DNA from: Weissella diestrammenae
GTDB lineage: Bacteria; Bacillota; Bacilli; Lactobacillales; Lactobacillaceae
Direction: 5' to 3'
Assembly: GCF_014397255.1 (NCBI RefSeq)
Contig: NZ_CP060724.1
Span: 1,364,001-1,428,000, forward strand
Length of the DNA: 64,000 nt
Part shown: positions 5,197-46,211 of the stretch, in pieces
Position numbering within the stretch: position 1 is the first letter of the stretch
Layout: every line of letters starts with the position of its first letter
Notes under the pieces: generated by a model
Databases searched by the model: none
Seen by the model: the letters and a program-made list of their open reading frames with translations, nothing else
Told to the model about the DNA's origin: nothing
Position numbers and translations under genes: made by a program

Positions 5197-5712
5197 ATGG
5201 CAAGTAAATATGACAGCCTAGTGAAACCTCACTTGGAAGATGTGAAACAACTGAGGCGGGCTGGTGCTAAGTATAGTCAGATTGCCAAAGAGTTGGGAAT
5301 CAGTTTAACCACATTAAAGAATTACAGGGAAGCACATGAAGAGTTTGCTCAGGCATTAGCAGATGAAGAACTTAATCTAAGAACGGCATTGGCTAACGTT
5401 GCAGAAGATGGATTGTTCACTAAGCTACGAGATAGATTCATTGATGAAGTAGTAGTGCGTGAAGTAATCGATAAGCAGAATGAAGTTCGAGAGCTTAGAG
5501 AAGTAAAGACGCGATTTGTACCAGCAGATACTACGGCAATTATCTGGGCGTTAAAGAATAGATTGCCTACTCAATGGAATAAGGACGAACATGAGTTATC
5601 TATTCTAAGGGGTAAGAAGATAGAAGCTGACATACATGCTGAATCATCATCAGAAGACTTAGGCAAGATGATACAGGATAGACTAGCAGGATATGGTGAT
5701 AGCAATGAATAG
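5197..5712 (+). CDS. terS: Terminase small subunit
   Basis: A 171-residue protein preceded by a very strong ribosome site (aaaggaggtgtg). The N-terminal helix-turn-helix (AGAKYSQIAKELGISLTTLKNYR) is the DNA-recognition domain that binds the packaging site; the rest is helical and should drive ring assembly. It starts the packaging module followed by the HNH nuclease and large terminase. The stop overlaps the HNH gene, so translation is coupled. Confidence 0.82.
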   Translation: MASKYDSLVKPHLEDVKQLRRAGAKYSQIAKELGISLTTLKNYREAHEEFAQALADEELNLRTALANVAEDGLFTKLRDRFIDEVVVREVIDKQNEVRELREVKTRFVPADTTAIIWALKNRLPTQWNKDEHELSILRGKKIEADIHAESSSEDLGKMIQDRLAGYGDSNE

Positions 5713-34309: not shown

Positions 34310-34508
34310 CCGGTTGACAATCAATTCAAATAGGAGATGTTATTGGTTTGCACCGGCCGATGAGAAAATCATTGTTATTTTTCTGTATGAAATGTTTGTC
34401 GCAATCAGTATCGGTTACTGACATGAGAAATTTGTCATGCCTCAACTATGATGTAAGTGTTTAGAGTTTAGTTAAAACCCAGAAATCCTATAATCTAAAC
34501 GTTTTAAG

Positions 34509-34533
34509 GAATAGAGCAATCTGTTCTTTTTTT
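34509..34533 (+). terminator. Strong small hairpin terminator, copy 1 of a duplicated element
   Basis: GAATAGA pairs with TCTGTTC around the tetraloop GCAA, followed by seven T. A near-identical hairpin with GTAA loop occurs at 43703-43727. No gene ends immediately before it, so it is a leftover or closes a small transcript. Confidence 0.75.
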
Positions 34534-34653
34534 CTGTTTTTTGAGAGATGGTTGAATAATGGCGCGTATAACATCATAGTAAGTTGAATCGAGCGAAAGA
34601 TTTTTTTGAATCCTAAAATTCTTTTTTGAAAACAACAGTTTTTATCAATCTAT

Positions 34654-34974: not shown

Positions 34975-35254
34975 CTGAAAATCGAACAAAAACAAGGTGA
35001 TAAATGTCCGAGAAATCAGACGAAAGAAAATGGTGTGAAATTTGCGAGTTTTTTTTGAGAACAAATGTAAAAACTACTTGTTTAATTTATTCTTAAACAT
35101 TAATATTCTTTTTAAGCGTTAATTAATATTTAAATTGTTTTTACTGATCGTGTCTGTTATTCAGTGTATAAGGTGATTGATTGACGTATTAGGTTGTTTT
35201 TTAGTTTCTTGTTGTGAATGTAATATTACATTCAAGAAAAATGGAGATTTTTAC

Positions 35255-36132
35255 ATGAAGAAATATATTTCAACTTTTTTGGCTACATTCACTTTAGTAT
35301 CTTCGGTGTTGGTTCCGATTGTGCCGGCTTTACTGATGATGTTGCAAGCAATACATATACAATGACTAATGGTAAATCAGTGACTATTATGGATAAAGAC
35401 ATCGTCGATGCAACTGAGACTAAAGGTGATCGTTCAGAAGTTAGTACGGGAACAGAGGAACGTAATACCATTATAGATGGTGCGACTGCTCTTGTACCAC
35501 TTGTTGATGGAAAGTGGAATAAAGTAAAAAATAGCTTGAGAGATATCAATGGGATATTGAGGACAAATCACGGTTATCATATTACAGGAGGAATACAAGC
35601 TGTTACGCCGGATTATCAACAATCGAGCAATGGTTGGTCGTGGCAAAGTGGAAAACAATCTAATTTAATCGTGGTGGGATACAATTATCAAAAATCAATT
35701 GCGATGTATGATAATTTGGGTATTGCAATGGGACTTGTTGATGTGACTGTTGCGTTACCATCGTTGTTTGTAGGACCAGTTGCTGGATTTGTAATTGGAT
35801 TAATTACAGGTAAAGGAACTAGTTATATCAACAGTCATTTTCTAGCACCAGATCGGAATGCTTTTGATAAGGCAACAGACCGTGGGTTTGGAACTGTTCT
35901 TACTAAAAATGTAAATACTGCTAGTTTGTATGATTATTTTTACAATGACAGTTGGCAAACTCCGCAAGCTGCATTATCAGTTCCGGATGGCTCAGATAAA
36001 CGTACGCCTTCTAATTGGCCTGGAGGAGCTGCGGCGATTAAGAAAGACTTTTACGGTGGTTGGTCATGTGACTATACAACAAGTGGTCGTTGGGTAGGAA
36101 CAAATAGGAACCCAAACAATAATAGGGCTTAA
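35255..36132 (+). pseudogene. Secreted FYGGWSCDY-family protein 1, frameshifted after the signal peptide
   Basis: ATG 35255 (atggag upstream) starts a Sec signal peptide of about 27 residues (MKKYISTFLATFTLVSSVLV, ending VPAL). The frame then runs off to a stop near 35365. Loss of one base near 35331 explains it: restoring it gives a normal Ala-Leu-Ala cleavage site followed by DDVASNTYTMTNG, and the frame then stays open to 36132. The mature part has a Gly/Val/Ile-rich hydrophobic stretch (YDNLGIAMGLVDVTVALPSL) and ends FYGGWSCDYTTSGRW. The C-terminus matches three paralogues at 44-46 kb. It is possibly bacteriocin-like. A sequencing error cannot be excluded. Confidence 0.65.
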
Positions 36133-36137
36133 TTATT

Positions 36138-36281
36138 ATGAATAAGAAATTAAGATGGCTATACTATTGTTTTCTTGTACCAGGAATCATTATCTTAGCA
36201 GAGGGATATAATAAGACTGGAGTGGTGATTATGACTATTGCAGGTTGTATTATTGTGTATGATTACGTCAATCGGAAATAG
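36138..36281 (+). CDS. Small two-helix membrane protein, candidate immunity protein
   Basis: A 47-residue frame starting five bases after the end of the secreted-protein gene. It holds two hydrophobic segments (LYYCFLVPGIIILA and VVIMTIAGCIIVYDYV) and a basic N-terminus (MNKKLRW). Its size, topology and position behind a secreted toxin-like gene are like those of bacteriocin immunity proteins. There is no ribosome site of its own beyond aggg, so it may be coupled. No sequence family recognised. Confidence 0.5.
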   Translation: MNKKLRWLYYCFLVPGIIILAEGYNKTGVVIMTIAGCIIVYDYVNRK

Positions 36282-36624
36282 AGATTGAATTTCCTTTGTT
36301 GGCTTTTAAATATTTCAGTGAATATAGTCTTTAAAAATAAATCCAATTATTAACGGTTTTTGGTGAAATTATTTGGAAGCACTTTCTATTTATGCTACAT
36401 GTAAGTTACAAAAAAATTGAACCGCAACAGCGCTGGCTCAACTTTCACAATTTAAGCACTGAACCTGCTCAAATCATTAACTTAATTCTATAAATTTAAA
36501 AGAGTAAAATAAAGGCCAAAGATTAGCAGGACTAACTTTATCCTTTTTATATTCTTAAAAAACTTTGATGTAAGGATAATGAGCTTTAACTAAATTTCCG
36601 ACACATACAACTATGATTGATTAG
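36282..36624. other. Gene-free AT-rich stretch
   Basis: No supportable gene. A weak hairpin (AAAGATTAG with CTAACTTT, about 36522-36544, followed by TCCTTTTT) might terminate the immunity-like transcript. The rest is AT-rich without recognised structure. Confidence 0.4.
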
Positions 36625-36653
36625 TTGCTCAAATTTGAAATTAGGTCTATAAT
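36625..36653 (+). promoter_or_regulatory. glyQS promoter
   Basis: TTGCTC (36625-36630), 17-base spacer, perfect TATAAT (36648-36653), ahead of the T-box leader. Confidence 0.65.
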
Positions 36654-36659
36654 TTACTT

Positions 36660-36873
36660 TCGTAAAGTTTGGGTAGAAAAAACGGATGAGACTTGTTAAG
36701 AAAGCCACGGTTAATGGGATGTGGTCGAGTTAATCCGTGGGGAGCTATTCAAAAAACTAGATAAATAAAAGCTGTCGAATTCATTCGGAAGCAGGGTGGA
36801 ACCGCGTTTTAGATAACTATAACGTCCCTGCATTAATCGTGTATTATGCATGATTAATGCAGGGGCTTTTTCT
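36660..36873 (+). promoter_or_regulatory. T-box leader of glyQS
   Basis: The T-box core GGGTGGAACCGCG is at 36794-36806. The bulge TGGA predicts pairing with a tRNA whose discriminator base is U, as for tRNA-Gly. The terminator stem CCCTGCATTAATC/GATTAATGCAGGG spans 36826-36864, then TTTTTC. Uncharged tRNA-Gly should stabilise the antiterminator and turn on glyQS. The specifier codon in stem I could not be placed with certainty. Confidence 0.9.
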
Positions 36874-36945
36874 TGTTTAAGATTAGAGAATCATTTATAT
36901 TGCATCGGAATTGAGTTGGATGAGCTATTAGTGAAAGGAAATAAA

Positions 36946-37872
36946 ATGACAGAAAAATTATCGGTTCAAGATATTATTTTGAAATTACAAGGATTTTGGG
37001 CGGCACAAGGTGCGATGTTAATGCAAGCATATGACACAGAAAAAGGTGCAGGGACGATGTCGCCATATACTTTTTTACGCGCTAACGGGCCTGAACCATG
37101 GCATGCTGCATACGTTGAGCCGTCACGCCGACCAGCTGATGGTCGTTATGGCGATAATCCAAATCGACTTTACCAACATCATCAGTTTCAAGTTGTGATG
37201 AAGCCTTCGCCAGATAATATTCAGGAATTATACTTAGAATCACTCAAGACTTTGGGAATTGACCCATTGGAACATGACATTCGTTTTGTTGAGGACAATT
37301 GGGAAAACCCGTCAATGGGTGCAGCTGGTATTGGTTGGGAAATTTGGCTTGATGGGATGGAAGTCACACAATTCACTTATTTCCAACAAGTTGGAGGTAT
37401 TCAAGTTGATGCAGTCACCTCAGAGATTACCTATGGTTTGGAACGGTTATCGTCATATATTCAAAACGTGCCAACCGTATACGATTTAGAGTGGGGAAAT
37501 GGCGTACTTTATGGTGACATTTTTAAAGAACCTGAGTTTGAACACTCAATGTATTCATTTGAGGAATCAGATCAAGCGATGCTATTACGTCATTTTGATG
37601 AGTATGAGGCTGAGGCAACGCGTTTACTAACCCTTGGTCTCGTCCATCCTGCATATGATTACATTCTAAAATCATCACATACATTTAATTTGTTAGATGC
37701 GAGAGGAACGGTTTCCGTTACTGAACGTGCAAAATATCTGAGCCGTATTCGTAAAATGGCTCGACAAGTCGCACGTGCTTTTATTGACGAACGGAAAAAA
37801 TTAGGTTTCCCACTCCTAAAAGACGAAGCACTTCGAGCAAAGTATTTACCAATCGTTGAGGAGGAAAATTAA
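36946..37872 (+). CDS. glyQ: Glycyl-tRNA synthetase alpha subunit
   Basis: ATG 36946 with gaaaggaa upstream gives 308 residues; an in-frame ATG at 36850 lies in the leader terminator. It is the class II catalytic subunit of the alpha2-beta2 enzyme, with [27 protein letters not shown] and [38 protein letters not shown] and [13 protein letters not shown] complete the active site. It activates glycine with ATP. It is transcribed with glyS two bases behind, under T-box control. Confidence 0.97.
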
Positions 37873-37873
37873 A

Positions 37874-39943
37874 ATGGCAAACTTTTTATTAGAAATTGGT
37901 CTTGAAGAAGTCCCCGCACATTTGGTGACGCCTGCCATTAATCAGTTAGTCACACGGGTTGCCGATTTTTTTGAATCCGAGCGATTACCATATGGCGAAA
38001 TTCAACATTATTCAACACCTCGCCGCTTGGCGGTTATTGTGACCGATGTTGCAAAACAAGCGGCCGATATTGAAGAAGAGATGAAGGGGCCGATTAAAAA
38101 GGCGGCTTTAGATGCAAATGGCGAATTTACTAAAGCAGCCGAGGGATTTGCGCGTGGTAAAGGTATGCGAACTGATGATATTGTTTTCAAAACCTTTAAT
38201 GGACAAGAATTTGTCACATTAACTCGTCATGAAACTGGAAAGTCTGCTGAAGAGGTGCTAGTTGGTATGCAACAAGTTGTTGAAGCCATGACATTCTCAA
38301 CGACTATGAAGTGGGGACGACATACTTTTGAATATGTTCGCCCAATTCGTTGGCTTGTTGCATTATTAGACGACAAGATTATTCCATTCCAGATTTTAGA
38401 TGTTGCAACTGGACGTCAAACCCGCGGACATCGTTTCTTAGGAAAGTCGGTCGATATCCAAAATGCGTTGGATTATGTTGAAGATCTAAAAAACGTCTTT
38501 GTGTTAGCTGACGCTACTGAACGTCGAGCGGTGATACAACAGCAGGTTGAAACAATTGCAAAACAGCATGATTGGCAAGTTGTTATTGATGACGAATTGT
38601 TAGAAGAAGTGAACAATATCGTCGAATATCCAACAGCATTTTCAGGTAGTTTTGATGCTAGTTATTTAGAAGTACCAGATGAAGTGTTGATTACATCAAT
38701 GAAGGCGCATCAGCGGTTTTTCCATGTCGTCGATATGAATGGTGAATTATTACCACATTTTATTTCTGTTCGTAATGGAAATGACCAGTATCTTCAAAAC
38801 GTTATTGCAGGAAATGAGAAGGTCTTGGTTGCCAGGCTAGAAGATGCAAAGTTTTTCTATCATGAAGACCAAAAACATGATATTGCCTTCTATAATCAAA
38901 AGTTATCAGTTGTTTCATTCCATGAGAAATTAGGGTCAGTTGCTAATCATACACATCGTGCAAAAGCTATTGCATTGACGCTTGCGTCACAATTGAATTT
39001 AGATGAAGCACAGCAAGTACAATTAGCGCGTGTAGCCGATATTTATAAATTTGATTTAATGACTGGTATGGTCGGCGAATTTGATGAATTACAAGGTGTG
39101 ATGGGTGAGAAATATGCGCTCATTTTTGGAGAAACACCTGCTGTGGCAACGGCCATTCGCGAACATTATATGCCAACCACGGCTGAAGGGGAGTTGCCAA
39201 CCACGATTTTGGGCAAAATATTGGCTTTGGCTGACAAGTTGGATACATTATTGGCCTTCTTTGCAGGCGACATGGTACCTTCCGGTTCAAATGACCCTTA
39301 TGCATTACGACGTGCAGCTACTGGTGTTGTTAATATTATTTCAGCAAATCAATGGGAACTTGACCTGAATCAAATTTTGACAACTTTTGTCGATGATGTA
39401 CAACAAGCGCCAGATCATTTGGGATTGCCTGATAATATTGCCACAGTATTACCAGATAATATTCAAACGGTCATTAATTTCTTGAAGGACCGTATTGTAA
39501 AGCTATTGCAAAATGATATTCGACGCGACATTGTTGAAGCCGTGGTGCAGACACAAGGCGCTAACGTAAGTGACATGATCATGACAGCGCGTGTATTACA
39601 AGCACATAGCAGTGATGCCAATTTCCGTGAGGGTGTTGAAGCCTTAACACGTGTTTTGCGTTTAACTAATAAAAATACAATTCAAGGTGAAGTTGAACCT
39701 GAAAAATTTGAGAACGACTCTGAACGTCAGTTGTTTAGTGATGTTAGCCAAATGACTATCAATTCACCAGAAGAATGGCAAAATCATTTATGGGCACTTC
39801 AACCAAGTATTAATCACTATTTTGATGAAACAATGGTTATGACAGATGATGTTGAGTTGCAACAAAATCGTTTGCGGACACTTAATTTAATTGCCCAACA
39901 AGCGCATCGTTATGCAAATTTGATGGCGTTACAAGTTAAGTAA
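37874..39943 (+). CDS. glyS: Glycyl-tRNA synthetase beta subunit
   Basis: ATG 37874 with gttgaggaggaaaatt upstream gives 689 residues. It begins with the LLEIGLEEVPAHLVTPA motif of GlyS. The B3/B4-like and HD-like domains follow (FEYVRPIRWLV; TGMVGEFDELQGVMGEKYAL; DKLDTLLAFF). The C-terminal anticodon-binding helical DALR-type region ends RYANLMALQVK. It supplies tRNA binding to GlyQ. The length is as usual for the family. Confidence 0.96.
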   Translation: MANFLLEIGLEEVPAHLVTPAINQLVTRVADFFESERLPYGEIQHYSTPRRLAVIVTDVAKQAADIEEEMKGPIKKAALDANGEFTKAAEGFARGKGMRTDDIVFKTFNGQEFVTLTRHETGKSAEEVLVGMQQVVEAMTFSTTMKWGRHTFEYVRPIRWLVALLDDKIIPFQILDVATGRQTRGHRFLGKSVDIQNALDYVEDLKNVFVLADATERRAVIQQQVETIAKQHDWQVVIDDELLEEVNNIVEYPTAFSGSFDASYLEVPDEVLITSMKAHQRFFHVVDMNGELLPHFISVRNGNDQYLQNVIAGNEKVLVARLEDAKFFYHEDQKHDIAFYNQKLSVVSFHEKLGSVANHTHRAKAIALTLASQLNLDEAQQVQLARVADIYKFDLMTGMVGEFDELQGVMGEKYALIFGETPAVATAIREHYMPTTAEGELPTTILGKILALADKLDTLLAFFAGDMVPSGSNDPYALRRAATGVVNIISANQWELDLNQILTTFVDDVQQAPDHLGLPDNIATVLPDNIQTVINFLKDRIVKLLQNDIRRDIVEAVVQTQGANVSDMIMTARVLQAHSSDANFREGVEALTRVLRLTNKNTIQGEVEPEKFENDSERQLFSDVSQMTINSPEEWQNHLWALQPSINHYFDETMVMTDDVELQQNRLRTLNLIAQQAHRYANLMALQVK

Positions 39944-40000
39944 GCAAGGTTGACTTGAACTGTGTTTGATAGTTCTTGTTAGGTCAATAAAGAAAGTGAG

Positions 40001-41227
40001 ATGGACATGCTTAAAAAATTGGAACAGTTTCCTATTTGGCAACGTAATATGTACGTCTTATGGGTTGGAGTATTTTTAACAGGCGCAGGCTTGAGTATGG
40101 TCAATCCGTTTCTATCATTGTATATTGATACACTAGGCAATTTCACAAAATCAGAATTGAGTTTGTACTCTGGTGCTACGTTTGCCATTAGTTTCCTCAT
40201 GATGGCGATTGTTTCGCCATTATGGGGGAAATTAGCGGATTTAAAAGGCCGCAAAAAGATGATTTTACGTGCTGGAATTGGGATGAGTATTGTCTTTATT
40301 GGCATGAGTGCAGTTAGTAATGTCTGGGAACTCATGTTATTGCGCGCGCTTCAGGGGGCATTTGGTGGATTTATTTCTAATTCGAATGCCCTCATAGCAT
40401 CTGAGACACCATTAGAACGATCAGGCTACGCAATGGGAGTCATGATGACCGGATCTACTGCTGGTACCTTATTAGGTCCGTTATTTGGTGGGATGATGGC
40501 TGATGCATTTGGTTATCGCTATTCATTCATGCTAACAGGCGGCTTAATTCTGTTGTCGACGATTTTGGTTTTGCTGTTAGTGAAAGAAGTTTTTGTTCCG
40601 GTCAAACGTGGCGAAACGCTTTCACGACAAGCTGTGTTTAAAACACTGAAATATCCTGGTGTGATGAAGGGCTTGTTTTTTACAACCATGATGATTATGA
40701 CTGTCAATCAATCGATTAACCCAATTCTTGCATTATTTGTACGTGAATTAAATCATCACGGGTCAAACACCGCATTATTGGCTGGGATTGTCGCAGCCAC
40801 ACCGGGTGTTGCCGCGTTGATTGCAGCGCCACGACTCGGCCGTTTGGGTGATAAATTAGGGACATCCAAAGTTATGATGTTTGGTTTTGGATTAGCATTT
40901 ATTGTCTTCCTACCAATGGGATGGGTTTCTGCCGTTTGGCAACTGGCCGCTTTGCGCTTTTTCATTGGCATTTCAGATTCAACGATGATGCCTGCATTGC
41001 AGACATTGATTACGAAGACAGCACCGCATGAGGTTGTTAGTCGGATGTTTGCCTATAATCAAAGTTATCAGGCGATGGGCTCTGTGATTGGACCAATTAT
41101 CGGTGCAGTGGCCACTAGTTTCTTTGATTATCGAGGCGTATTCATTATTTCTGGGCTAATCATTGGTATTAACGGTATTTGGTTTAGATACAATACGCGA
41201 CAATTACGTGAGGATGGTATCGCATAA
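40001..41227 (+). CDS. MFS multidrug efflux transporter (MdtG/PmrA-like)
   Basis: A 408-residue protein with twelve predicted membrane helices. MFS motif A appears as PLWGKLADLKGRKKMIL between helices 2 and 3, with the antiporter motif C in GVMMTGSTAGTLLGPLFGG in helix 5. It resembles MdtG/PmrA drug exporters (FTKSELSLYSGATFAISFLMMAIVSP). It probably exports cationic or amphipathic drugs by proton exchange. Start ATG 40001 or 40007, with agaaagtgag upstream. It lies behind glyS, with a weak gap of about 60 bases. Confidence 0.88.
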   Translation: MDMLKKLEQFPIWQRNMYVLWVGVFLTGAGLSMVNPFLSLYIDTLGNFTKSELSLYSGATFAISFLMMAIVSPLWGKLADLKGRKKMILRAGIGMSIVFIGMSAVSNVWELMLLRALQGAFGGFISNSNALIASETPLERSGYAMGVMMTGSTAGTLLGPLFGGMMADAFGYRYSFMLTGGLILLSTILVLLLVKEVFVPVKRGETLSRQAVFKTLKYPGVMKGLFFTTMMIMTVNQSINPILALFVRELNHHGSNTALLAGIVAATPGVAALIAAPRLGRLGDKLGTSKVMMFGFGLAFIVFLPMGWVSAVWQLAALRFFIGISDSTMMPALQTLITKTAPHEVVSRMFAYNQSYQAMGSVIGPIIGAVATSFFDYRGVFIISGLIIGINGIWFRYNTRQLREDGIA

Positions 41228-41348
41228 TATCACACGGATTGATCGACTAGGCTCAAATCTAAAAATGATAAATCTCTTATAAAAACGTTCTAAATGTTGT
41301 TGTTGACGATTTGAATAATTATTTCTAGCTTGAACTGGAAAAGAATGC

Positions 41349-41376
41349 TTTACATTTATTAAGAATGCAGTATCAT
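41349..41376 (+). promoter_or_regulatory. guaB promoter candidate
   Basis: TTTACA (41349-41354), 16-base spacer, TATCAT (41371-41376), upstream of the riboswitch. Confidence 0.5.
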
Positions 41377-41410
41377 AAGTAACAATAACTTTTATAAAAA
41401 AATAACAGTT

Positions 41411-41543
41411 TTGCAGATATATACTTGGGAAAATGGCCCGAGAGTTTCTAGCACCCCCAAAAGTGGTGACTATCCGCAATTGCTTTTTGAACTTCAAACC
41501 TTCGAAACACATTTGTGGTAGTCATACCACCAGTGTGTTTTTT
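41411..41543 (+). promoter_or_regulatory. Guanine-type purine riboswitch with terminator, controlling guaB
   Basis: P1 is TTGC with GCAA (41411-41414 and 41476-41479). P2 is CTTGGG/CCCGAG. The core AGTTTCTAGCACC and the J3/1 segment GACTAT are present; the C in GACTAT (not GATTAT) predicts guanine or hypoxanthine binding. Behind it, AAACACA and GTGGT pair with ACCAC and TGTGTTT, followed by T7 at about 41537-41543. Guanine should cause termination (OFF switch) ahead of the IMP dehydrogenase gene. Confidence 0.9.
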
Positions 41544-41583
41544 TATAATTTCGTCAGGATATTATTTTAGGAGGATTTATTTC

Positions 41584-42747
41584 ATGGTTTTGAATGGTGT
41601 GACGCAAGGTGGTTTTGCTAATAAGGTAGTGCAGTTGGGACTGACATTTGATGATGTGTTAATGGTGCCAGCAGCATCCGCAGTTTTACCAAATTCAGTG
41701 TCATTACAAACAAATTTAACACCTACTTTGAGATTAAACATTCCAGTTTTATCTTCCGCAATGGATACAGTAACTGAGTCACGTTTAGCAATCAGATTGG
41801 CACAATTGGGTGGCATGGGCGTTATTCATAAGAATATGCTAATCGAACAACAAGCAGCCGAAGTTAAACGAGTCAAGGCGGCACCAGTTGATCTTGGCTT
41901 GAATCCTGCCGCTGCGACTGATAATGAGGGACGTTTATTAGTTGCTGGTGCAGTGGGTGTCACCTCAGACACGATTAATCGGGTTGAAGCATTGTATCAA
42001 GCTGGGGTCGATGCAATTGTCCTTGATTCGGCACACGGCCATTCTGAAGGGGTTTTGAAGAAGGTACGCGAGGTACGGACCACTTTCCCACAAATCAATA
42101 TCATTGCTGGTAATGTGGCAACTGGTGCGGGAACACAAGCCTTGTACGATGCTGGGGCTGATGTGGTAAAAGTTGGTATTGGTCCTGGTTCAATTTGTAC
42201 AACACGGGTCGTTGCAGGGGTTGGCGTGCCACAAATTACGGCCATCTTAGAAGCGAGTGCAGTTGCAGCACAGAATGGTAAAAGTATCATTGCAGACGGT
42301 GGGATGAAATATTCTGGTGACATTGTTAAGGCGATTGCCGCAGGTGGAAATGCTGTGATGCTTGGTTCAATGTTAGCTGGAACTGATGAGACCCCCGGTG
42401 ATGTCATTGAAGATGAAAAAAATGGTAATAAATATAAGTCATATCGTGGTATGGGATCAATTGCGGCCATGGAAAATGGCTCAAAAGATCGTTATTTCCA
42501 AGGTGAAATCAATGAAGCTAATAAAATGGTCCCAGAGGGTATTGAAGCACGAACTGCATACAAAGGGACATTAGCTGATGTGATTTTCCAAATTATTGGT
42601 GGTCTTCGTTCAGGTATGGGATATACGGGTGCTGGTTCAATTAATGACTTAATTGAAAAAGGTCAATTTGTTCAAATTACTGGTGCAGGATTAATCGAAT
42701 CACATCCACATGATGTCGAAATAACTGCTAAGGCACCAAATTACTAA
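41584..42747 (+). CDS. guaB: IMP dehydrogenase lacking CBS domains
   Basis: ATG 41584 after ttttaggaggatttatttc gives 387 residues. The catalytic Cys is Cys205 in [37 protein letters not shown] and the flap region [21 protein letters not shown] are intact. The usual enzyme of about 490 residues has a two-CBS Bateman module after the GGMGVIHKN helix; here that stretch is replaced by a short linker, as known in several LAB enzymes. It converts IMP to XMP, the first step of GMP synthesis. A guanine riboswitch upstream gives product feedback. Confidence 0.95.
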
Positions 42748-42758
42748 ACATGAGTTAT

Positions 42759-42802
42759 AACAAAATAAGCGTCAATCCTTTTGGATGACGCTTATTTTGT
42801 TA
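42759..42802. terminator. guaB terminator
   Basis: TAACAAAATAAGCGTCA pairs with TGACGCTTATTTTGTTA around a short loop. It is almost perfectly symmetric, so it may work on both strands. Confidence 0.88.
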
Positions 42803-42920
42803 TGATAAATCTAATTATTTATGATGATGAACGAGCTCAATTCAATGAATTGAAGAAAATTGTAAAAAACATCTGCTATTCATGATAAACTAAAGATATT
42901 ATCAATTGATGGGGGAAAGC

Positions 42921-43538
42921 ATGTACTTTAAGTATTTACGCGTCTCATGGTTGCATCCTATTTTAGCTTTTTTGGCGTTGCTAGTAGATGGTGCAATTGC
43001 CTTACATGGCGCTCAAATTTTATATCGATTACCAATGTCTGCGAGTCCATATCTTGTGTTGCTAGTTTTGTTAATGCCAATTTTATCAGGTGTGATTAGA
43101 ACACAGCCTGAGCAGCGCAGTAGTGTTTTTATGACGGCCTTCATTATTGGCTTAATATATGACTTATATTTCACTGGCTATGTTGGCGTATCAATGATTG
43201 GCTTCCCATTGGTTGTTTGGTTTGCAGAATGGATTCAACGTTATTTTGAGCAGTCATATCTATGGGAAATGGCTATATATTTTATGGTTCTTAGTGTCTA
43301 TCTAGTGTATGATTATCTGGCTTTTGGGGTAATTAATGTGGCAAATATGAATTTACAAAATTTTGTTATTTTTCACATGTTCCCGTCAATTTTGGTCAAT
43401 ATGATAATTTTCATTTTGACATTTACATTTTTGAACTGGGTGTATCAGGGTGCCCGAGAACCAAATCTTGCGAGTTATCATGTTGAGGATCGACAAATTA
43501 ATGACCGAATGCCGTTAAAAAGGCGTTCATCTCGATAA
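42921..43538 (+). CDS. mreD: Rod shape-determining protein MreD
   Basis: ATG 42921 with gggggaaag upstream gives 205 residues; ATG 42909 is an alternative. Five to six membrane helices, with the MreD-type loop AFIIGLIYDLYFTGYVGVSMIGFPLVVW. The C-terminus is a short basic cytoplasmic tail (MPLKRRSSR). MreD acts with MreC and RodA in lateral wall synthesis. No mreB or mreC is next to it, so it is an orphan locus here. Confidence 0.72.
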   Translation: MYFKYLRVSWLHPILAFLALLVDGAIALHGAQILYRLPMSASPYLVLLVLLMPILSGVIRTQPEQRSSVFMTAFIIGLIYDLYFTGYVGVSMIGFPLVVWFAEWIQRYFEQSYLWEMAIYFMVLSVYLVYDYLAFGVINVANMNLQNFVIFHMFPSILVNMIIFILTFTFLNWVYQGAREPNLASYHVEDRQINDRMPLKRRSSR

Positions 43539-44160
43539 GGTAATGGTTGGATGTGACGATTATTTGAGCAATCGATTGAAATAAAATCAGCGAGAAGTAC
43601 CATTGCCATAAACAACAGCTTGTATCTTTTTGTGTTAGAAAATAATCATAAGCATTCAGTATTTGTATCAGACGAATAATATTCGTGTGCAGATGCTTTA
43701 AAGGACAGAGTAATCTGTTCTTTTTTTATATTTTGCAGTTGTTGATTAATCCTATATCAAGAAAGATGGCAAATGTCCGTCAAATTCATAGCGGTTTGAT
43801 TCCGAAAAGGAAATTTGAAGATAACAAATGGCTCAAACACAGGATTCATCCAGTTGTAAATGGGGAAAAGATATAGGTTTGATGTGGCTAGAAAGCTTGC
43901 TCAATCAGATTGCTTGAATTTAAAAATTAAACGTTTTTTGAAAGGCACTGAAAGTAAAATACTATCAAGCAATTAAATAATAGCGAACATGCGTTGCTGA
44001 TTGTGTCCGGTTTTTCGGAAGAAAACGTAATTAAAATGAACTTTCTACGTTGGATTTGTGAAAGGTTCATGAATGTTATTTACGGGCTGTGAAATGGGTG
44101 CTAAGGTTTAAATTAATTGTGCGAGATACTGGTGCTATATTTAATTTTTAGGAGATTTTT
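43539..44160. other. Decayed intergenic region with duplicated terminator
   Basis: No intact gene. The hairpin terminator copy 2 lies at 43703-43727. A short open stretch around 43740-43876 reads MANVRQIHSGLIPKRKFEDN and later KHRIHPVVNGEKI, without a recognised family; it may be a remnant. AT-rich DNA follows, with a ribosome site aggaga directly before the paralogue gene at 44161. Confidence 0.5.
43703..43727 (+). terminator. Strong small hairpin terminator, copy 2 of a duplicated element
   Basis: GGACAGA pairs with TCTGTTC around the tetraloop GTAA, followed by seven T. It matches copy 1 at 34509-34533 in 3' arm and tail. Confidence 0.75.
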
Positions 44161-44946
44161 ATGTTCAAGATTAAAAAAGCCAAATTGTTGAGTTGTGGAG
44201 TGGCTTCGGGGTTGTCATTGTTGCTGTTGTCTGCTTAGTTTGTATCTTTAATTAAAGCTGATGAAGCACAACCTTCAAATAATACATTTGACGGTGGGAA
44301 CCTCTTTAGAGAAAAAGGTATTAATGATTATATTAAAGAATACAAAGATGAAGATGCTAGAGGAATAGTTAAGGTTAAAAAAATAGATGGTAGTTCAGTA
44401 TTTGAAAATAAAGCTGATGCAAAACAAAGTGATGTAAATATTGTCGGAGGTGCAAGTAGCGTTGGTGTTATGCCGACTGCTGATAGTCGTATTGACGGAA
44501 CGCTTGCATGGAGTTATCAAAATTCATTGAGAACATTTAATTATTTAAATAATAATACAGCAGCGGTTATTTCTGTGAGTGTGGGTGGCGGTGTTGCTGC
44601 ATCGTTAACACCAGCACAAAATACAATTGTGCGAGCATATTTTGACTGGGTTACAGATAACGGATTTGGTTTACAAATAAGCAATGCATGTTTTATAAAT
44701 CCAGCCTCTGGGTCAATAAATTGGTGGTGTAATGATTCGTATCCAACTCAGTCAGCTGCAGTGAATGTTCCGTCGGCACCTGATATTTGGGATACAGCAA
44801 ATAGTGGAAATAAAAGAAAAATAACTGTGAAACATTGGTCTGAATTAGGATGAATATCAACGGCTTTTTATGGTGGATGGTCTTGTGACTATGCTGGCAC
44901 TGCTCGAGGAGCAGCTTGGGCAGGTGTTGGTAAAGGACATAAATAA
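44161..44946 (+). pseudogene. Secreted FYGGWSCDY-family protein 2, two in-frame stops
   Basis: A single frame of 262 codons from ATG 44161 (ribosome site taggagattttt) to TAA 44944-44946. TAG at 44236-44238 ends the signal peptide region (KLLSCGVASGLSLLLLSA) and TGA at 44851-44853 precedes the C-terminus. All other codons are open, so decay is recent. The mature part has LAWSYQNSLRTFNYLNNN, VSVGGGVAASLTPAQN, NGFGLQISNACF, WWCNDSYP and, after the second stop, AFYGGWSCDY, ending GKGHK. It is nearest to the intact copy downstream. Confidence 0.8.
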
Positions 44947-44981
44947 AAATTAAATGCGAATCAATTATTTGAGGGCTTATT

Positions 44982-45614
44982 ATGAATAATAAAAAATTAA
45001 AAAAATTTATTTTGATTGTTTTTTGTTTATCTTTGACTTATTTCGGGCTAGTAAATCCATCTGTTGAAGGTAGTTCATTTAAGGGTGATTATTTATTGCC
45101 ATGTTTGGCAGCAAAATCAGCTATAAAACAACAAAAAAAGTTTCCACAAGCAGATGTAAAATATAAGAATACATTAGCATGGAGTTACCAACATAGTGTT
45201 GATGCATACAATTATTTGAATGAGTTATCAGATAATTCCATTAACTTAATTGCAAAAAAGGGAATAGTTAATAATTATAGTAAAAATAATACAACTTTAA
45301 AAGCATTATTCAAATATGCCATTTCTAATGGTTTTGGATTACAATTGAGCGTTGCAGGTTTTGAAAACACCAGCAATTTAAAGAAAAATTTTTGGTGTAA
45401 CGATTCTTTTCCCGATCGAAAAAGTGCGTGTAAAATTGAGGGCATTCCCACTGTGTGGGACACCCCAAACAGCGGGAACAAAGGGGAAAAAACTGTTAAA
45501 TACTGGTCTGAATTAGGAAATATCCCGACAGCTTTTTATGGTGGATGGTCGTGTGATTATGCGGGCACTACAAGAGGAGCTGCGTGGGCAGGAGTAGGTA
45601 AGGGGCATAAATAA
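44982..45614 (+). CDS. Secreted FYGGWSCDY-family protein 3 (only intact copy)
   Basis: A 210-residue protein with ribosome site gagggc. The signal peptide or signal anchor is about residues 1-30 (LKKFILIVFCLSLTYFGLV). Mature features: LAWSYQHSVDAYNYLNEL, SNGFGLQLSVAGF, FWCNDSFPDRKSAC, VWDTPNSGNKGEKTVKYWSELG, and the end AFYGGWSCDYAGTTRGAAWAG. Several Cys residues (in WCND, SAC and SCDY) could form disulphides outside the cell. It belongs to no family I recognise. A bacteriocin or other secreted toxin is possible from the repeats and decay pattern. No immunity-like gene follows this copy. Confidence 0.7.
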   Translation: MNNKKLKKFILIVFCLSLTYFGLVNPSVEGSSFKGDYLLPCLAAKSAIKQQKKFPQADVKYKNTLAWSYQHSVDAYNYLNELSDNSINLIAKKGIVNNYSKNNTTLKALFKYAISNGFGLQLSVAGFENTSNLKKNFWCNDSFPDRKSACKIEGIPTVWDTPNSGNKGEKTVKYWSELGNIPTAFYGGWSCDYAGTTRGAAWAGVGKGHK

Positions 45615-45656
45615 ATTTGTGCTATATCGGTATACATAATGATTCGAGGATAAATA

Positions 45657-46211
45657 ATGAACAAAAATAGTATGTTGGCTAGCCGTGCTGGTACTACAGA
45701 TGAGTACGGGTTTTGGGTATGCCAGTGGGAGTACGATTGATTTAAATCACGTAACGTACATACTGGCAAAAGCTGGTGTGAATATTATTGAACCTTAAAA
45801 AATTTTTTCTAAAACGAATACAATCTAAAAAAATACGGCCGCATGGCACTATAAAGATTCAGTTAAGGCATATATATATTTAGCTTTATTACCAATTTCG
45901 GCAACAAAATGAATGGCAGCAGATAATATTTCGACCATATATTACCCGAAAAAAGGAGAACTTTATTAAAATCTCTTTTGAAGTCAGACTATTGGTGTAA
46001 TGATCCTGTTTCGACGCTTCAAAAGGCGGTGAATCAAAAAATGGTACCTGGCGTTTGGGATACTGCTAATAGTTCGAATTTAGGTAAGAGAACAGTTGCA
46101 CATTGGTCAGAATTAGGTGGTATTTCGACAGCTTTTTATGACGGTTGGTCTTGTGATTATCATAGAGATGGCACTTGGGTAGACGTTGGTAGTGTTAAGA
46201 ATGTTGATTAA
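45657..46211 (+). pseudogene. Secreted FYGGWSCDY-family protein 4, heavily degraded
   Basis: Fragments of the family lie in two frames: AWHYKDSVKAYIYL (about 45848-45890), interrupted by stops, and an open C-terminal part from about 45978 with YWCNDPVSTLQKAV, VWDTANSSNLGKRTVAHWSELGG and AFYDGWSCDY. The signal peptide region is no longer recognisable. It is a decayed tandem duplicate of the two genes before it. Confidence 0.72.

What the first reader, a model, noticed from the sequence alone, without database searches (positions are those of the whole stretch)
35255..46211. Four-member family of secreted FYGGWSCDY proteins, mostly decayed
Four loci (35255-36132, 44161-44946, 44982-45614, 45657-46211) share a C-terminal W-S-E-L-G ... 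A-F-Y-G-G-W-S-C-D-Y core, a W-C-N-D motif and, in the three 44-46 kb copies, an A-W-S-Y-Q-like repeat. The first copy lies 9 kb away from the others, across glyQS and guaB. Only one is intact. The Sec signals, Gly-rich hydrophobic stretches and rapid birth and death suggest secreted antagonistic proteins (bacteriocin-like), possibly undescribed.
Basis: partly seen in the sequence, partly recalled or inferred. Interest (0 to 1): 0.78.

Follow-up and report, generated by a model that had tools for sequence, protein, structure and literature searches.

The report
Secreted bacteriocin-like proteins with membrane immunity partners
The four related genes are real and belong to an unnamed family of secreted proteins found in only four of about a thousand related genomes searched; many of them are followed by a tiny membrane-protein gene that sometimes outlives its lost partner, the pattern expected of bacterial toxins that kill competitors and of the immunity genes that protect the producer.

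Summary
Four related genes lie at the stated places. Only 44982-45614 (210 aa) is intact. The copy at 35255 lacks one base in its signal peptide and belongs to a longer subfamily with FYND instead of WCND and no WSELG. First, the genome carries at least four more copies (272 kb, a stub beside it, 770 kb, 1,585 kb), and relatives occur in only one other Weissella-type genome and two Leuconostoc genomes. Second, 8 of 16 family genes, including all six long ones, are followed within 20 nt by a 47-79 aa hydrophobic ORF, against 3 of 79 control genes (p about 1e-5). At two loci the big gene is deleted down to a C-terminal stub while the small gene stays open. At radA-gltX in two Leuconostoc genomes (about 96% identical flanks), big genes were swapped and the old partner gene remained. 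This is the genetics of toxin and immunity pairs. Best reading (about 0.7): a new family of large, Sec-secreted, non-lytic bacteriocins with membrane immunity proteins, working like dysgalacticin/DysI but with no Pfam, NCBIfam, PHROG or PDB relative. Killing activity and fold remain untested; AlphaFold models were poor.

The parts
35255..36132 (+). Copy 1 (W1), long subfamily; signal peptide MKKYISTFLATFTLVSSVLVPIVP, then a one-base deletion; open from 35362 (256 codons). Hydrophobic segment VALPSLFVGPVAGFVIGLI before DRGFG; ends FYGGWSCDY
   Evidence: profile E 2.4e-56
35217..35232 (.). Perfect palindrome AATGTAATATTACATT just upstream of the copy-1 ribosome-binding site; occurs exactly twice in the genome, the other upstream of the 272-kb paralogue (shared duplicated upstream region)
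36138..36281 (+). 47-aa hydrophobic ORF MNKKLRWLYYCFLVPGIIILAEGYNKTGVVIMTIAGCIIVYDYVNRK, 5 nt after the copy-1 stop; candidate immunity protein
   Evidence: decayed relative at 1,028 kb
44161..44946 (+). Copy 2 (W2), pseudogene: TAG at 44236-44238 in the signal peptide, TGA at 44851-44853 before the C-terminal core; orthologue of the intact first gene of an L. pseudomesenteroides tandem pair (L012:4052-4831, 64% aa identity)
44982..45614 (+). Copy 3 (W3), intact 210-aa secreted protein, short subfamily; orthologue of the second gene of the Leuconostoc pair (L012:4926-5510, 60% aa identity)
45657..46211 (+). Copy 4 (W4), decayed by frameshifts and several stops; recognisable AAWHYKDSVKAY in one frame and WCND...FYDGWSCDY in another

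Best explanation
The genes encode large (mature about 17-29 kDa) Sec-secreted antibacterial proteins (bacteriocins) aimed at close relatives. They are made together with a 47-79 aa membrane protein that protects the producer. Proposed working: the preprotein leaves by the Sec pathway; the conserved C-terminal core (NGFG... WCND/FYND ... FYGGWSCDY ... WVGVG) binds a surface target or forms the folded part; the variable central segment, strongly hydrophobic in several long-subfamily members, inserts into or disrupts the target membrane; and the cognate membrane protein blocks this in the producer. Shown here: the family, the signal-like N-termini, the adjacency and co-occurrence with small membrane genes, loss of the toxin with retention of the partner gene, and purifying selection on the big protein. 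Inferred: killing, membrane action, and the protective role of the small protein. The window's 44-46 kb cluster is a mostly dead array. Its intact gene and the gene before it form a conserved tandem pair also found in Leuconostoc, without an immunity ORF beside it, so how that pair is neutralised is unknown.
For: Small hydrophobic ORF starting -10 to +17 nt from the stop in 8 of 16 family genes (6 of 6 long ones) versus 3 of 79 controls, Fisher p = 1.3e-5. The two small-protein families tested occur only in genomes carrying the big protein (A8: G268 and G136 only, of 19 Leuconostoc; A9: own genome and G022, of 28 in the genus, plus one marginal hit, E 0.008, in G016), always beside a big gene or its remnant. 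Toxin lost, partner kept: G022 contig 50 has the stub 'DYYSAGRWVGVNGNKTAY*' then an intact 61-aa partner; own genome at 272 kb has the stub 'FYGGWSCDYRSNGTWTGVGEVKNDY*' then an intact 53-aa membrane ORF; copy 1 in the window is frameshifted and its 47-aa partner is open. Allele swap: L014 and L055 share flanks of 96% identity; between them lie different big genes, and L055 resumes at the last six codons of the L014 big gene followed by the homologue of its partner gene. Big proteins are under purifying selection (dN/dS 0.11-0.39), while the one partner pair with usable dS diverges fast (31% identity, ratio about 0.86, 52 codons). Patchy and multicopy distribution. Same gene logic as dysgalacticin with DysI: 220-aa Sec preprotein beside a membrane-associated immunity gene (PMC8308785).
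Against: No activity data. Eight of 16 genes, including both tandem pairs and the intact window copy, have no small hydrophobic ORF directly behind them. The retained partner gene in L055 carries a one-base slip in a T run. No fold could be established: AlphaFold2 pLDDT 53 and 44, no Foldseek match at E <= 0.001. The short subfamily has no strong hydrophobic segment, so membrane insertion may not apply to it. Small hydrophobic proteins are easy to over-read.
Confidence: 0.7

Rival explanations
1. The big proteins are secreted surface or matrix-binding proteins (adhesins, host or plant-surface factors) and the small membrane proteins are accessory (secretion helpers or anchors), not immunity.
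For: Sec signals; Trp/Tyr-rich C-terminal core could be a binding module; no enzymatic domain detected.
Against: No sorting signal, repeat or cell-wall anchor seen. A helper has no reason to stay open when its partner is reduced to a stub, nor to diverge faster than it. Swap at one locus with partner retention is typical of antagonism.
Confidence: 0.15
2. The family is a diverged papain-like (peptidase C39-like) fold, either a cell-wall or peptide-cleaving enzyme or an inactive derivative.
For: Order-wide profile search gave weak matches (E 4e-4 to 1e-3) to C39-like proteins sharing NFYYNDSW; hhalign aligns 54 columns, probability 39%.
Against: Family members and their consensus do not hit Pfam C39 models. 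No conserved Cys-His pair: invariant residues are Y69, G117-F118-G119, N140-D141, P156, W159, F185, G188-W189-S190. Weak hits all come from one gene family in one genus among 395 genomes.
Confidence: 0.07
3. Non-functional relics: a decaying gene family with no present role, the small ORFs being chance open frames.
For: Most window copies are broken; some small ORFs have no detectable relatives.
Against: Intact members with dN/dS 0.11-0.39 across genera; small ORFs are 8/16 versus 3/79, several are homologous to each other at 24-43% identity and have ribosome-binding-site-like sequences.
Confidence: 0.08

Closest known systems
Dysgalacticin / DysI and streptococcin A-M57 (large non-lytic class III bacteriocins of streptococci)
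   Same: Sec-exported ~200-aa protein without enzymatic domain; adjacent gene for a membrane-associated immunity factor (PMC8308785)
   Different: Plasmid-borne single genes in streptococci; here chromosomal, multicopy, with a conserved FYGGWSCDY core. Sequence relation not testable: both records are absent from the held collections
Geobacillin 26 / alicyclobacillin 24 family
   Same: Sec-secreted ~240-aa narrow-spectrum bacteriocins with suspected membrane action (PMC13176240)
   Different: They carry a predicted C-terminal transmembrane helix; here the C-terminus is polar/aromatic and the hydrophobic segment, when present, is central. No NCBIfam hit for our family
Type VII toxin/immunity loci such as TspA/TsaI with arrays of orphan immunity genes
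   Same: Polymorphic toxins with membrane immunity proteins and retained orphan immunity genes (PMC9484751, abstract seen)
   Different: Exported by type VII secretion; here Sec-type signals and no LXG-like domain found
Peptidase C39-like family (Pfam PF13529)
   Same: Local resemblance at YYNDSW
   Different: No Pfam hit, no conserved catalytic Cys/His

Membership tests
Class III non-lytic bacteriocin of the dysgalacticin kind | N-terminal Sec signal, unmodified protein > 10 kDa | tested here: met
   Signal-like N-termini in intact members, e.g. MKKIITLMMLIVTVVGAFVPIVPVLADE, and ORFs of 182-304 aa; read from sequence, no SignalP run
Class III non-lytic bacteriocin of the dysgalacticin kind | Adjacent membrane-protein immunity gene | tested here: inconclusive
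   Adjacency met for 8/16 genes, 6/6 of the long subfamily, versus 3/79 controls, but not for the intact window copy or the tandem pairs; protective function not tested
Class III non-lytic bacteriocin of the dysgalacticin kind | No lytic enzyme domain | tested here: met
   No Pfam or NCBIfam domain at any relevant score
Class III non-lytic bacteriocin of the dysgalacticin kind | Sequence relation to dysgalacticin or SA-M57 | not testable with these tools
   Records AY907345 and AY648561 not held
Class III non-lytic bacteriocin of the dysgalacticin kind | Killing of sensitive relatives without lysis | not testable with these tools
   Needs culture work
Geobacillin 26 family | Match to the family by sequence | tested here: inconclusive
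   No NCBIfam hit, but whether the library holds a model of that family was not verified
Geobacillin 26 family | C-terminal transmembrane helix | tested here: not met
   Most hydrophobic 19-mers lie centrally; C-terminal part polar/aromatic
Class IIa (pediocin-like) or other small class II bacteriocins | < 10 kDa with YGNGV motif | tested here: not met
   182-304 aa; conserved motif is FYGGWSCDY
Peptidase C39-like (PF13529) | Conserved catalytic Cys and His; Pfam match | tested here: not met
   No Pfam match for members or consensus; no invariant Cys-His pair

The most novel reading that the evidence does not exclude
An undescribed family of polymorphic Sec-secreted toxins confined to Weissella and Leuconostoc, with dedicated fast-evolving small membrane immunity proteins. 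They are exchanged as modules at fixed chromosomal sites (for example radA-gltX), leaving orphan immunity genes behind; a variant works as a conserved two-protein tandem without a linked immunity gene.
Probability: 0.55. Interest if true: 0.68.

Novelty: new variant of a known kind. Interest (0 to 1): 0.58.

Why it matters
[quoted passage not shown] A family with many natural alleles, swapped toxins and linked candidate immunity genes in food-associated Leuconostoc and Weissella would give a genetic handle on how such proteins recognise targets and how small membrane proteins neutralise them. It could also explain competition in fermentations and supply narrow-spectrum antimicrobials.

Tried and rejected
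Curated families: Pfam, NCBIfam, PHROGs, PADLOC and PDB sequence search gave no hit above noise. Plasmids, phages and viral contigs: no relatives, so not a phage or plasmid cargo family in those collections. Structure: two AlphaFold2 jobs from 6-8 sequence alignments gave pLDDT 53 and 44; Foldseek best E 1.7 and VIA-align best Z 4.6 (sliding clamps, residues ~61-140 only), not meaningful. C39 peptidase lead: weak, unsupported by Pfam or catalytic residues. Link to a LytTR/histidine-kinase regulatory pair next to the orphan partner in G022 contig 50: the same regulator pair in the two Leuconostoc genomes sits beside a different secreted protein with no family member there, and the own genome lacks the regulator, so read as a chance insertion site. 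LytTR-type direct repeats upstream of the genes: not consistent. Class-wide and order-wide searches for distant relatives found none beyond the four genomes.
Full report
What is there. The window is part of a 1.66-Mb single-contig genome. Copy 3 (44982-45614) is intact. Copy 2 carries two in-frame stops, copy 4 is riddled with stops and frame changes, and copy 1 has lost one base at the end of the signal peptide compared with its paralogue at 272 kb, to which it is alignable over about 300 nt of upstream DNA as well. The genome holds further copies: an intact ~303-aa gene at 272 kb followed by a stub of a second one, a broken copy at 770 kb and an intact 288-aa gene at 1,585 kb.

Distribution. 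Profile searches over 397 family genomes, 395 order genomes and 398 class genomes (overlapping samples, one genome per species) found the family in only four genomes: the window's own, G022 (four copies plus remnants), G268 (same contigs as L. pseudomesenteroides KCTC 3652; three copies) and another Leuconostoc, G136 (two copies). It is absent from 26 other genomes of the genus and 17 other Leuconostoc genomes. Plasmid, phage and viral collections hold none. No curated family or solved structure matches.

Anatomy. Two subfamilies share a C-terminal core: (N/R)GFG, then (W/F)(C/Y)ND(S), then F-Y-x-G-W-S-C-D-Y and W-x-G-V-G. The short subfamily (182-259 aa; copies 2-4) has WCND and, in most members, WSELG or a variant of it. 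The long subfamily (288-304 aa; copy 1) has an extra N-terminal domain with the pattern TMxNGK...KDSDIVDA...KGDR and a variable segment before RGFG that is hydrophobic in most members, up to 2.17 Kyte-Doolittle over 19 residues in copy 1. In the short subfamily the WCND cysteine and the WSCDY cysteine occur together in most members; the long subfamily lacks the first, so a conserved disulphide is not general.

The partner gene. Behind 8 of 16 family genes, starting between -10 and +17 nt from the stop, is an ORF of 47-79 aa with one or two hydrophobic segments; among 79 other long genes in the same loci only 3 have such an ORF by the same criteria (Fisher p = 1.3e-5). All six long-subfamily genes have one. 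In the window it is 36138-36281, 5 nt behind copy 1. Several are homologous to each other (43% identity for one pair, 24-31% in a second group). Searches of 19 Leuconostoc and 28 genus genomes with these two groups found them only in genomes that carry the big protein, apart from one marginal hit. G136 has several in tandem.

Toxin lost, partner kept. The one partner gene found away from a full family gene, on G022 contig 50, turned out to be preceded by a remnant of the last ~18 codons of a family gene. At 272 kb of the own genome a 32-codon C-terminal stub precedes an intact 53-aa membrane ORF. Copy 1 itself is frameshifted with its 47-aa partner open. A decayed relative of the copy-1 partner lies at 1,028 kb beside another small membrane ORF, with no big gene visible. 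At radA-gltX, two Leuconostoc genomes are 96% identical on both sides, but one carries one big gene plus partner and the other carries two different big genes with three partner ORFs. The second genome re-joins at the last six codons of the first genome's big gene and keeps that gene's partner, though with one base less in a T run. In toxin-immunity systems this direction of loss is expected, because losing the toxin is cheap and losing the immunity is dangerous (general knowledge of such systems).

Selection. Between species the big proteins are constrained (dN/dS about 0.11 for the 1,585-kb gene versus its G136 relative, 0.14 for copy 2's core versus Leuconostoc, 0.31-0.39 among more diverged long members); synonymous sites are near saturation, so these are approximate. 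The matching partner pair is only 31% identical with a ratio about 0.86 on 52 codons.

Mechanism. I propose a Sec-secreted antibacterial protein with a membrane-protein antidote. The nearest described logic is dysgalacticin, a 220-aa Sec-exported class III bacteriocin that disturbs membrane potential and sugar uptake, with the membrane-associated immunity factor DysI encoded next to it (PMC8308785). Membrane action here is inferred from the hydrophobic central segment of long members and the membrane nature of the partner. It is least supported for the short subfamily, and for the tandem pair (copies 2 and 3, conserved with L. pseudomesenteroides L012), which lacks an adjacent partner gene. 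In L012 the second gene of the pair lacks an in-frame ATG and seems slipped in an A run.

Limits. No experimental data. The two AlphaFold models are poor and their fold searches meaningless. Signal peptides and transmembrane segments were judged from sequence and hydropathy only. Control genes for the adjacency test come from the same loci and are not a random genome sample. Relation to dysgalacticin and geobacillin 26 by sequence could not be settled.

Noticed in passing
L064:3579-4028, L065:3077-3775, L054:7526-8320 (- strand): Another secreted protein family (AASIEQMKANVNADTG...EELGRDMTK...GYFSTLDPVxGSYYEIN) sits beside a LytTR response regulator and a histidine kinase in one Weissella-type and two Leuconostoc genomes; truncated in L. 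pseudomesenteroides. The own genome lacks the regulator.
   Followed up: partly
L012:3868-3911 and 5524-5563: The tandem pair in L. pseudomesenteroides is flanked on both sides by nearly identical terminator hairpins (GGTTCGATACAG.AAATAGTGTATCGAACC), as if inserted or duplicated with the terminator.
   Followed up: no
window 35217-35232: A perfect 16-bp palindrome AATGTAATATTACATT occurs exactly twice in the whole genome, upstream of copy 1 and of its 272-kb paralogue; possible operator or inherited duplicate.
   Followed up: partly
G000:C1:768469-771732 (L004, L016:4733-5365): The broken copy at 770 kb is followed, with overlapping ATG, by a 209-aa multi-pass membrane protein without Pfam match; possibly a different type of partner.
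   Followed up: no
L013:788-1768: Another secreted protein of unknown family (ACVFPSYNPCVPVTTLDGNQTLSTNLTISSGHKLVIGNDF...) lies about 3 kb upstream of the G022 contig-33 family member, on the opposite strand.
   Followed up: no
window 34503-34540 and 43697-43734: A 38-nt direct repeat at 84% identity lies roughly 0.5-0.7 kb upstream of both family loci, 9.2 kb apart; it may mark an older duplication.
   Followed up: no
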